Origin: Pleomorphomonas diazotrophica
GTDB taxonomy: Bacteria; Pseudomonadota; Alphaproteobacteria; Rhizobiales; Pleomorphomonadaceae
NCBI RefSeq assembly: GCF_002844595.1
Contig: NZ_PJNW01000010.1
Coordinates: 1-44,906 of the forward strand
DNA: 44,906 nucleotides
Direction: 5' to 3'
Below the pieces are notes generated by a model. It did not search any database and was not told the DNA's origin. It worked only from the letters and a program-made list of their open reading frames with translations. Shown one piece after another: positions 42,207 to 44,906 of this stretch. A program made the position numbers and the translations under genes. Each line of letters begins with the position of its first letter. Positions within the stretch are counted from its first letter, which is position 1.

Positions 42207-42749
42207 GTCAGACCGCCCCCGCGCCTGAAGGTGTTATTCGATTGTAGGCAGCCCCCATACGATCCGTGTACGCCTTTGATTTTCCTCTGAAAGGATTCCA
42301 AATTTTCTGATTCGACAAGTATTGCCAGTTTTTACCATGGCGGTAGCGCGGCGCATCTTCTTCAGTAAAAGTAGAATGGCCCATTCACCCGGTCAGGGCG
42401 CGCAGCGCCGCAACAAGCGTCGGTTCACCGCCAGAACGCCCGCAGCCGAATACATCGGAGAAACGGGACAAAACCGCGCATCGCGCGGGATTGGAGCGCC
42501 CGTGAAGGCAATTGTGCCAAGCCAATCAACGGCATCGGCGATGCCGAAACGCATGGGTGAGCCGGCGAGTTCATCTTGATGAACTTGGATTATTCCCGAA
42601 ATGACATTAGACCAATTGCGTAACATAGGTAAAACTCGCAGAAAATTTATCTCTCATCTTAGTCCCTTGTTAACGGCACTTTCCCAAAATTTGTCATCCA
42701 GACCGGGCTACCACCAAAAAGTGCAGCCTGAACTGTGGAGGGCGGTATT
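42207..42749. other. Gene-free stretch between the GGDEF-EAL and chemoreceptor genes
   Basis: The 540 bases carry the divergent promoters of both flanking genes. No coding region is supported. A perfect small hairpin, CCGCGC-atc-GCGCGG, lies at 42474-42488 and lacks a T-run. The right third is AT-rich and probably includes the chemoreceptor promoter; no sigma-28-like site was identified. Confidence 0.55.
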
Positions 42750-44444
42750 TTGTCTTACGCAAATTTGTCAATATTGGCAAAAGTTTCGGGGCTACTGGTA
42801 CTTCTCGGGATCGGCGCCTTGGCCGGCGGCGGCTATGCAGGCTATCAGATGGTCGCCATCGACGATGCCTACGGACAGCTTCTCACCGGGCGTTCGGCGG
42901 CCAGCCTCTACTTCTCCCGGTCCAACCGGGCGGTGTCCGACCTCGCCACCAGCCTCTACTGGAACGCCGCCGCGACCAGCGAGGAGGACAACCGCGCCGC
43001 CGCCACAGCCCGCACCGCCGCCCTCGACGACATCGAAAAGAACATGGGCCTTGCCATCGCGGCCGCGCCGGAGAAGAAGGCCGAGCTGGAGGGCATCATG
43101 TCCTCGGTCAAGGCGCTCATGACCGGCGCCTGCGGCGAGGTGGTCAAGCTGTCCCAATCGACGGATGACGCTGCCAACGCCAAGGCGCTCGGTCTGCTGA
43201 CCGCCGAATGCCACCCGGCCGTCGCCGCCGTGCAGAAGACGTCGGTCGCCATCAACACCACCCTCATCGGCGAGACCCAGGCGATCAGCGACGCCAACAC
43301 CGCGGCGTCCTGGCGGGCGGTGTGGATGACCCTCGGCTTCATCGTCCTGACGGTGGCAGCCGTCATCGCCCTCGCCATCTTCCTGCTGACCCGCGGCGTG
43401 ACGCGGCCGATCGGTCGCATCGTCGACGCCATGCACCTGATGCAGGGTGGCCGCTATGACATCGGCATCGACGGCCTCGGCCGCAAGGACGAGGTGGGCG
43501 AGATCGCCGGCGGGCTCGAATCCTTCCGCCTCAGCCTGATCGACGCCCAGGCCGCCCGCAAGGCGCAGGAGGCGGCCAAGGCCGCCGAGGACGCCGCCAT
43601 GCGCAAGCGGTCCGAGATGGCGGAACGCTTCGTCAGCCGCATGCAGGAACTGGCTTCCGGCTTTGGCTCTTCGTCGATGGAGGTGGCCGACGCCGCCCGC
43701 AGCCTGTCGGCCACCGCCGAGGAGACCGCCCGCCAGGCGCAGGCGGTGACCGGCGCAGCCGAGGAGGCGGCGACCAACGTGCAGACGGTGGCCGCCGGCA
43801 CCGAGGAGCTGTCTGCCTCGATCCAGGAAATTTCCAAGGAGATCAGCCACTCCTCCGTCATCGCCCGCGAGGCGGCCAAGGAGGCGGAGACCAGCTCGCA
43901 GAACGTCCAGACGCTGTCGCAGGCGGCCCAGGAGATCGGCGAGGTGGTGACGCTGATCAGCACCATCGCCGCCCAGACCAATCTCCTGGCGCTGAACGCC
44001 ACCATTGAAGCCGCCCGTGCCGGCGAAGCGGGCAAGGGCTTCGCGGTGGTCGCGGCCGAGGTGAAGCAACTCGCCGACCAGACCGCCAAGGCCACCAGCG
44101 AGATCGGCAGCAAGATCACCGAGATCCAGGCCGCCACCGGCCATACGGTGGAGGCCATCTCGCGCATCGTCAGGACGGTCGGCAACATCCAGGAATCGTC
44201 GGCAGCCATTGCCGGCGCGGTGGAGGAACAGGGCGCCGCCTCGGCCGAGATCGCCCGCAACACCCAGCGGGCGGCGACCGGCACCACCGACGTCACCTCC
44301 AACATCACCGGCGTCAGCACCGCCGCCGAACTGACGGGCGCCGCCTCGACGCAGCTGATGACGCTGTCCGAACGGCTGAACGAGCAGTCGGGCTCGCTGC
44401 AACAGGAAGTCGCCGACTTCGTGAAGAGCCTCAACGCCGCCTGA
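42750..44444 (+). CDS. Methyl-accepting chemotaxis protein
   Basis: 564 residues. TM1 is at ~8-30 ([23 protein letters not shown]), a four-helix-like periplasmic sensor domain with two Cys at ~30-185, TM2 at ~192-215 ([22 protein letters not shown]), HAMP at ~215-270 ([13 protein letters not shown]), and the cytosolic signalling coiled coil. The hairpin tip contains [40 protein letters not shown]. The C-terminus lacks the NWETF methyltransferase-docking peptide. I chose TTG at 42750, because GGAGGG at 42737-42742 has ideal spacing to it and [12 protein letters not shown] resembles other receptor N-termini; the in-frame GTG at 42735 overlaps that site. No che genes are adjacent. Confidence 0.94.
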
Positions 44445-44500
44445 GACGAACAGGAGATCTAGCCGGACGGCCCCGCCACCCCAGCCGCCCGGTTATGAGG

Positions 44501-44686
44501 AACCCCGCCGCTAGTGGTTCGATTCCGACATTTGCCTCCGCTTGATACTAACCTCGGAGCAAATGTCGGAATCAAAAGAACCACTAGCAAGTTTTTGTTT
44601 CTAGTGGAGCTTTTGAATTTGACATTTGAGCTGGAGCCTTATGTCGAGCGGGACTCAAATGTCAAATTCGCTCCACTAGCGGGGTT
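44501..44686. repeat. Composite element of two adjacent long hairpins with terminal inverted repeats
   Basis: Outer arms AACCCCGC (44501-44508) and GCGGGGTT (44679-44686) enclose two long hairpins. Hairpin 1 (44511-44587): CTAGTGGTTC pairs with GAACCACTAG, and GATTCCGACATTTGC pairs with GCAAATGTCGGAATC, with an AAAA bulge on the right. Hairpin 2 (44601-44679): CTAGTGGAGC pairs with GCTCCACTAG, and GAATTTGACATTTGAG with its complement, with a TTTT bulge on the left. Reverse-complemented, hairpin 2 aligns with hairpin 1, and their arm differences are compensatory. They could also serve as terminators of the chemoreceptor gene, since both are followed by T-runs on the plus strand. Confidence 0.85.
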
Positions 44687-44906
44687 TTTCGTGGCTGGTG
44701 GACCAATGCCGCGTCGCTGAAGAGGACCCAGTTGCCGGCGTCCTCGCAACTACGGATGCCAGACCGGTGCCCGCTTTGGCTCTACGGCATGCACACATCT
44801 GCGCTGAGGGGACCTCAGGACAGCGGAGCGCGGCGGATCAGGCTGACACGGCTTTTTGAGCGTGATATGGGCCGCTCGTTTCATTCTGCCCGAGGTACAC
44901 CGTGCA
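44687..44906. repeat. Window-end non-coding stretch with a family A repeat (reverse)
   Basis: No coding region is supported. On the minus strand, from about 44905 to 44850, GTACCTCGGGCAGAATGAAA followed by GGCCCATATCACGCTC resembles the copy at 1-54. A further GGGGACCTCAGGACAGCGGA lies on the plus strand at about 44807-44826. The last bases may run into more of the repeat beyond the window. Confidence 0.45.

What the first reader, a model, noticed from the sequence alone, without database searches (positions are those of the whole stretch)
44501..44686. Paired long hairpins with compensatory arm changes, inside terminal inverted repeats
Seen: two adjacent hairpins of about 77-79 bases share the ends CTAGTGG/CCACTAG and a core GACATTTG/CAAATGTC. 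One is inverted relative to the other. Where their arms differ (GGTTC/GAACC versus GGAGC/GCTCC; ATTCC/GGAAT versus AATTT/AAATT) both arms differ together. Their 4-base bulges (AAAA on the right in one, TTTT on the left in the other) coincide after inversion. An outer AACCCCGC/GCGGGGTT pair encloses both. Covariation of this kind means structure is selected, either as folded RNA or as folded single-stranded DNA used by an enzyme such as a REP-type tyrosine transposase.
Basis: partly seen in the sequence, partly recalled or inferred. Interest (0 to 1): 0.75.

Follow-up and report, generated by a model that had tools for sequence, protein, structure and literature searches.

The report
Double-hairpin jumping DNA in Alphaproteobacteria
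The paired hairpins are one copy of a small DNA element, repeated in many Alphaproteobacteria, that carries no gene of its own and has probably been moved about by an IS630-type jumping-gene enzyme; such two-armed repeats are known, but what moves them has been an open question.

Summary
Window 44511-44679 is a 169-bp element: two inverted hairpins (77 and 79 nt), a 13-nt linker, CTAG at both ends. Three full copies lie in this genome; its arm pattern occurs in 12 of 14 genomes of the genus. A model of it, which also catches sister families, matches 20 of 385 class genomes, this one included. In 74 distinct full copies the arms covary (201 two-sided changes; shuffles 48.5). G-T and A-C cells are equally rare (45 each), so nothing points to RNA.

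The outer AACCCCGC/GCGGGGTT pair is a host terminator that the element split at a CTAG. Another copy's orthologous site lacks the element in nine of nine relatives; one relative of it sits nested in another element's CTAG.

The outer arms resemble ends of IS630-family insertion sequences that also sit at CTAG. REP-type tyrosine transposases are absent here. Best reading: a MITE-like element moved in trans by an IS630-family transposase, built like the CIR repeats of 2003. New are the proposed mobiliser, inner-arm bulges and an IHF-like linker. Movement was not shown; no matching transposase was found in this genome, and several element-bearing genomes show no IS630-type gene.

The parts
44511..44679 (+). 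whole element, 169 bp, A-linker-B, bounded by CTAG at both ends
   Evidence: three full copies in this genome (C2, C4, C40); arm pattern in 12 of 14 genus genomes
44511..44587 (+). hairpin A (outer arm 44511-44535, inner arm 44559-44587 with 4-nt bulge)
44574..44577 (+). AAAA bulge on the inner arm of A
   Evidence: 3-5 nt in 73 of 74 copies, 0 in one; sequence varies
44588..44600 (+). linker between the hairpins
   Evidence: 13 nt; similar linkers in element families with other stems
44585..44597 (+). IHF-like site TAGCAAGTTTTTG (one mismatch to WATCAANNNNTTR; consensus recalled)
   Evidence: 45 of 74 copies within one mismatch, 2.5% of shuffled segments
44601..44679 (+). hairpin B (inner arm 44601-44630 with 4-nt bulge, outer arm 44654-44679)
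44611..44614 (+). TTTT bulge on the inner arm of B
   Evidence: 3-5 nt in 74 of 74 copies
44511..44514 (.). left CTAG (target; contains the TA)
   Evidence: G019 empty site of another copy has one CTAT; nested case has one CTAG
44676..44679 (.). right CTAG (target; contains the TA)
44521..44525 (+). GATTC, a GANTC site in outer arm A; its partner GAATC is at 44569-44573
   Evidence: GANTC in the A outer arm of 57 of 74 copies
44497..44508 (+). left half of the split host terminator (GAGGAACCCCGC); not part of the element
   Evidence: joined flanks fold as GAGGAACCCCGC-CGCTA-GCGGGGTTTTTC, -20.6 kcal/mol
44679..44690 (+). right half of the split host terminator (GCGGGGTTTTTC); shares only the first G with the element
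42735..44444 (+). upstream methyl-accepting chemotaxis protein gene
   Evidence: PF00015 E 1.7e-28, HAMP 4.1e-6

Best explanation
The element is a non-autonomous, MITE-like transposable element. An IS630-family (DDE) transposase encoded elsewhere binds its two outer arms (CTAGTGGNNCGANNNNGACATTTG) and moves the 169-bp unit into CTAG-like targets, leaving a TA on each side. Shown: dispersed copies, sites without the element in relatives, CTAG at the ends, outer ends resembling IS630 ends, pairing of the arms kept by changes on both sides, 3-5-nt bulges on the inner arms, an IHF-like linker. Inferred: that the transposase acts on it; that the bulges shift the spacing of the inner arms so that only the outer arms serve as ends and A-B moves as one unit; that IHF bends the linker so the outer ends meet; that the hairpins matter as DNA.
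For: (1) Dispersed repeat: 3 full copies here, arm pattern in 12 of 14 genus genomes, model match in 20 of 385 class genomes, this one included; 12 plasmid records, 4 of them covering 80% or more. (2) Insertion: the C40 copy's orthologous site lacks the element in nine of nine relatives aligned, two of which hold another repeat there; the best match, G019, reads GATCG-CTAT-ATCCTCGG where this genome has GAGCG-CTAG...CTAG-ATCCTCGG. In L047 a family-1 element sits at the CTAG of a related family-2 element (by eye). The window copy splits a terminator-like hairpin at CTAG. (3) Mobiliser: five IS630 copies in G117, identical over 1,152 bp, lie at five different CTAG sites; after CTAG both ends match an element arm at 16 of 20 positions; 20,000 random TGG-starting 20-mers reach 16 in 0.015% of cases. 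L195, L215 and L220 reach 16 at one end. L177, of the same genus, reaches 17, but its decayed ends were picked by eye; L066 and L154 reach 18 but were found by the element pattern. IS630s with TAGAGCG ends score 6-11. P0001 (L195) and L177 are IS630-family transposases. (4) Eleven solo derivatives join the two OUTER arms without bulges; 8 of 11 keep CTAG at both ends.
Against: No transposase with matching ends was found in this genome: its one DDE_3 match (L040) has no CTAGTG in the 3,399 bases held. In the genus, 5 of the 12 genomes with the pattern (G009, G010, G013, G014, G016) have no DDE_3 match, nor have 13 of 32 genomes chosen by the end pattern. P0001-like IS630s do not co-occur with the element in the class sample (1 of 20 against 13 of 365, p 0.53); DDE_3 in general does (10 of 20 against 78 of 365, one-sided p 0.006), without correction for genome size. 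The second ends of L195, L215, L220 and L177 score only 12-13 of 20, which random TGG 20-mers reach in 2.6-7.8%. Other relatives among the P0001 hits match poorly (L217 11 and 13, L221 10 and 12, L223 13 and 11). The exact junction is readable in G019 only, and there it is CTAT. Movement was not observed. The IHF step rests on a recalled consensus.
Confidence: 0.74

Rival explanations
1. A REP/BIME-like element moved as single-stranded hairpins by a REP-associated tyrosine (HUH, Y1) transposase.
For: Two inverted hairpins around an IHF-like linker resemble BIME-1, whose inter-REP sequence binds IHF (PMC2817692 passages). The empty sites would also fit insertion without duplication. The three family genomes with Y1_Tnp (G011, G012, G019) all carry the pattern.
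Against: Y1_Tnp has no match in this genome nor in 9 of the 12 pattern-bearing family genomes, this one counted. Ends are symmetric and resemble DDE-type IS630 ends. The REPs in the part of the RAYT table seen are some 20-40 nt and mostly begin with or near GTAG/GTGG; these arms are about 80 nt.
Confidence: 0.07
2. A structured RNA (regulator, terminator or attenuator) selected in the host.
For: Strong covariation and a very stable fold.
Against: Watson-Crick pairs dominate (3524 cells); G-T (45) and A-C (45) cells are equal, so neither strand behaves as an RNA. No Rfam family reaches its gathering score in the 1,006 bases searched. The C40 site lacks the element in nine of nine relatives.
Confidence: 0.06
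3. The arms covary not because pairing is selected but because palindromes are corrected by template switching or conversion between arms; the element is simply a decaying MITE.
For: Compact multi-base paired changes (GATTCC to GACCGA on both arms) and few one-sided intermediates fit templated correction. L124 has a bulge-free A hairpin.
Against: Correction would also erase the inner-arm bulges, yet 73 of 74 A arms and 74 of 74 B arms keep 3-5 nt, with varying letters, and most of the 20 loci show them too (by eye).
Confidence: 0.3
4. A host-domesticated DNA site (nucleoid, methylation or gyrase site) that is no longer mobile.
For: GANTC in the A outer arm of 57 of 74 copies; CIR repeats were linked to GANTC methylation (PMC2229807 passages).
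Against: Scattered presence in the class (20 of 385), nesting and absence at the orthologous site point to movement; 17 of 74 lack GANTC in that arm.
Confidence: 0.08

Closest known systems
CIR, Caulobacter CcrM-associated intergenic repeats (Chen and Shapiro 2003; paper not held, known here from passages of PMC2229807 and PMC10969869)
   Same: Alphaproteobacterial intergenic repeat; two long inverted-repeat arms joined by a linker; 5'TA3' at the termini; GANTC. Two 118- and 121-bp loci found with the model, L279 and L280, have GANTC in or at a terminal loop, as described for CIR.
   Different: About 169 bp against about 110; GANTC lies in the stem of A, not in a loop; CIR is tabled as without terminal inverted repeats and with unknown target duplication. 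CIR letters could not be compared.
Bru-RS1 and Bru-RS2 of Brucella (103-106 bp)
   Same: Small palindromic repeats of an alphaproteobacterium; proposed hot spots for IS711, whose target is YTAR.
   Different: Shorter; sequences not available here, so kinship is untested.
IS630-derived MITEs: Correia/NEMIS, RUP
   Same: TA at the ends; named as IS630-derived; an IHF site in some Correia elements.
   Different: No arms or linker; a stem-loop formed by end-to-end pairing, against two separate hairpins with inner bulges here.
BIME-1 (REP-IHF-REP)
   Same: Two oppositely oriented palindromes around an IHF site.
   Different: REPs are tied to RAYT tyrosine transposases; none was found in this genome.

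Membership tests
IS630-family MITE | No own gene, short, terminal inverted repeats | tested here: met
   165-172 bp; outer arms inverted, within 3 mismatches of a relaxed form of the arm pattern (by selection) in 74 copies
IS630-family MITE | TA duplication on insertion, one copy in the empty site | tested here: met
   one readable orthologous junction (G019, CTAT) and one nested insertion (L047, CTAG)
IS630-family MITE | Ends match those of an autonomous IS630-family element | tested here: met
   16 of 20 at both ends of the G117 copies, 16 at one end of L195, L215, L220; second ends weaker
IS630-family MITE | Partner element in the same genome | tested here: not met
   single DDE_3 match without CTAGTG nearby; past presence cannot be excluded, and MITEs can outlive their partner (recalled)
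IS630-family MITE | Mobilised by the IS630 transposase | not testable with these tools
   needs an excision or binding assay
CIR repeats | Two inverted-repeat arms with a linker, TA termini | tested here: met
   against the description
CIR repeats | GANTC at or in a terminal loop, about 110 bp | tested here: not met
   169 bp, GANTC in the A stem; met by L279 and L280
CIR repeats | Sequence similarity to CIR1-CIR4 | not tested
   paper not held
REP/BIME moved by RAYT | Cognate Y1 tyrosine transposase in the genome | tested here: not met
   0 matches in this genome; matches in 3 of 20 family genomes
Rfam structured RNA | Match above a family's gathering score | tested here: not met
   none in 43901-44906

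The most novel reading that the evidence does not exclude
These elements, CIR and perhaps Bru-RS form one superfamily of IS630-driven 'double-hairpin' transposons of Alphaproteobacteria, in which the DNA hairpins are working parts: bulges disable the inner arms as ends, IHF bends the linker, and the two folded arms hold the outer ends for the transposase. Stems are rewritten between families while architecture, CTAG ends, bulges and linker largely stay.
Probability: 0.3. Interest if true: 0.7.

Novelty: new variant of a known kind. Interest (0 to 1): 0.52.

Why it matters
Two-armed intergenic repeats of Alphaproteobacteria were described in 2003; a 2007 review says how such sequences are transposed is a question for future work (PMC2229807 passages). 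The end matches name a candidate enzyme group, and the conserved bulges and linker suggest a mechanism that can be tested at the bench. It also warns that strong base-pair covariation in an intergenic repeat need not mean RNA: comparing G-T with A-C cells is a simple test.

Tried and rejected
Outer AACCCCGC/GCGGGGTT as part of the element: rejected, not in the other copies and explained as a terminator. A general preference for hairpin or terminator targets: not found (61 empty sites against 258 other CTAG sites, one-sided Mann-Whitney p 0.27). Rfam: no family. Y1 transposase: rejected for this genome. The IS630-type gene of this genome (L040) as partner: no CTAGTG near it. Text search of papers for six strings of 7 to 15 letters: 6,699 unspecific papers; of the 40 listed none is about this element by title, and the two longest strings scored 0 in all 40. 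CIR and RIME source papers: not held; Bru-RS letters: not in the passages read. Co-occurrence with P0001-like IS630: none.

Rows dropped or biased: the 74 copies had to have both outer ends within 3 mismatches of a pattern and pass an orientation rule, so truncated and end-decayed copies are missing and outer-arm constancy is partly by selection; 56 of the 113 loci hold such a copy. In alignment A1 three rows (L060, L100, L139) are misaligned near the linker; without them G-T is 40 and A-C 38. Those tallies leave out the weakest of 51 pairs; with it G-T is 49 and A-C 52. The null is labelled 20,000 but its pool held 10,557 sites; I use that. The L177 right end was scored out of register and correctly. 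Of the 20 stretches, two (L278, L282), near copies of others, were left out of the linker count.

Papers: passages only of PMC2229807, PMC2573895, PMC2267715, PMC10800456, PMC2266754, PMC10969869, PMC1273637 and PMC2817692; PMC3973325 was searched for three terms without a hit. All others were seen as search listings.

Full report
What is there. Window 44511-44679 holds two hairpins, A (44511-44587) and B (44601-44679), in opposite orientation, joined by 13 nt (CAAGTTTTTGTTT) and bounded by CTAG. The 201-base stretch folds at -109 kcal/mol as RNA (z -11.9) and -61 as DNA (z -10.7), with no shuffle of 200 as good in either case.

The outer pair is host DNA. The other two full copies of this genome (C4:67681-67849 and C40:304422-304590) have unrelated flanks. 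Joining the window's flanks over one CTAG gives GAGGAACCCCGC-CGCTA-GCGGGGTTTTTC, a hairpin of -20.6 kcal/mol with a run of T, just after a chemoreceptor gene (42735-44444; MCPsignal E 1.7e-28). So the element inserted into a terminator-like loop. This is not a rule: 61 reconstructed empty sites are no more structured than 258 other CTAG sites (p 0.27).

Copies. The pattern CTAGTGG-N5-25-GACATTTG occurs in 12 of 20 family genomes, all 12 in this genus (12 of 14; 0 of 6 in other genera). The genus is probably Pleomorphomonas: the three DDE_3 places of G015 equal those of the genome behind L076, titled Pleomorphomonas sp.. A covariance model of 74 copies matched 20 of 385 class genomes at E 1e-4 or better, this genome included; some of these matches are sister families. 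blastn found 12 plasmid records, 4 of them covering 80% or more of the query.

Covariation. In 74 distinct full copies (165-172 bp), 95.9% of cells pair, 20 of 51 pairs show changes on both sides and 201 cells do; shuffles give 11.8 and 48.5, partners slid by 1-3 columns at most 12 and 27. The outer arms were partly fixed by the search pattern; the inner arms were not. Leaving out one weak pair, 3524 cells are Watson-Crick, 45 G-T and 45 A-C. An RNA read from one strand should favour G-T; the equality argues for constraint, or correction, of DNA. Inner arms carry a 3-5-nt bulge of varying letters in 73 of 74 A and 74 of 74 B hairpins.

Relatives with other stems. Stretches fetched for 20 model hits include elements with quite different stems (GAAGTTCG, CAGATGCG, ACGCTTGG cores; 111-170 bp) but the same plan: CTAG-like ends, two hairpins, inner-arm bulges in most (by eye), and a similar linker. 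The linker region comes within one mismatch of WATCAANNNNTTR (the IHF consensus, recalled) in 45 of 74 copies against 2.5% of shuffled segments and 0.8% of 592 other segments, and in 10 of 19 linkers from the other loci. Copies are related, so these are not independent events.

Insertion. The orthologue of the C40 site was aligned in nine relatives and lacks the element in all nine; G014 and G009 carry another repeat there. The intergenic stretch is too diverged to read the exact junction except in G019: GATCG-CTAT-ATCCTCGG where this genome has GAGCG-CTAG...CTAG-ATCCTCGG. In L047 (621-980) the element lies at the CTAG between hairpin and linker of a related family (by eye).

Mobiliser. IS630-family insertion sequences with CTAGTGG ends exist in Alphaproteobacteria. 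G117 holds five copies identical over 1,152 bp at five different CTAG sites; both ends match an element outer arm at 16 of 20 positions after CTAG. Random TGG-starting 20-mers reach 16 in 0.015%, and 12 in 7.8% (20,000 of 24,678). L195, L215 and L220 reach 16 at one end and only 12-13 at the other. L177, an IS630 in this genus with decayed ends that I picked by eye, gives 17 and 13. L066 and L154 reach 18 but were found through the element pattern. Other P0001 relatives match poorly (L217 11 and 13, L221 10 and 12, L223 13 and 11), L207 14 and 13, and IS630s with TAGAGCG ends 6-11. NCBIfam calls P0001 (L195) and L177 IS630 transposases.

Against this reading: this genome's only DDE_3 match has no CTAGTG in its 3,399-base stretch; 5 of 12 element-bearing genus genomes and 13 of 32 genomes chosen by the end pattern have no DDE_3 match; P0001-like IS630s do not co-occur with the element (1 of 20 against 13 of 365), though DDE_3 in general does (10 of 20 against 78 of 365, one-sided p 0.006, genome size not corrected). 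The simplest reading is that copies outlive the IS that made them (inference).

The tyrosine-transposase idea. Y1_Tnp matches 3 of 20 family genomes (G011, G012, G019), not this one; those three carry the pattern, but 9 of 12 pattern-bearing genomes have no Y1_Tnp match.

Derivatives. Eleven solo hairpins of 72-75 bp join the two OUTER arms without the bulges; 8 of 11 have CTAG at both ends and 3 have one decayed end (a twelfth row, L124, is hairpin A of a full copy).

What is known. Delihas 2007 (PMC2229807; passages read) describes CIR: about 110 bp, two arms and a linker, TA at termini, GANTC at or in a terminal loop. The original paper is not held. L279 and L280 (118 and 121 bp) have GANTC in or at a terminal loop of the second hairpin, so they may be CIRs. 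The window's element shares the plan but not the size or the place of GANTC. Literature searches listed no paper that, by title or by the passages read, ties such two-armed elements to IS630; papers outside the held library were not searched.

Verdict. A MITE-like double-hairpin element, most likely moved by IS630-family transposases: confidence 0.74 for that statement, about 0.3 for hairpins, bulges and IHF as working parts.

Noticed in passing
L011 around 1520-1581 (C4 copy's left flank); query 392-467: A second, abundant intergenic repeat (about 45-75 bp, AGTTCCGGACGCAAAACCGGTTCCCGCTTTTGCTGGAACTG) shows in 12 of 14 genus genomes in a truncated list; a similar sequence fills the orthologous C40 site in G014 and G009.
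   Followed up: no
L114 6239-6494: A-linker-B followed by a second linker and a third, family-2 hairpin: a three-hairpin array sharing CTAG boundaries.
   Followed up: partly
L154 7757-7882, viral contig: An IS630-like left end begins at a CTAG inside the inner arm of a family-1 A hairpin; the contig ends inside it.
   Followed up: partly
L157-L160, viral contigs: A variant in which inner ends changed from CTAG to CGCG or CTCG while most outer ends keep CTAG.
   Followed up: no
L156 220-385, viral contig: Another palindromic repeat (ATTGCGAGCGAAGCGAAGCAATC type) follows directly on an element outer arm.
   Followed up: no
L173 895-2067: IS630 with near-perfect ends CTAGTGTCCCGTCCCGCAAAT, resembling the outer arms of the family-2 hairpins (CTAGTGTCCCGATTCCGAAATTCG).
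   Followed up: partly
L010 1563-1715 (C3 copy): Decayed copy: a 72-bp A hairpin and what looks like a remnant of B about 65 bp further on.
   Followed up: no
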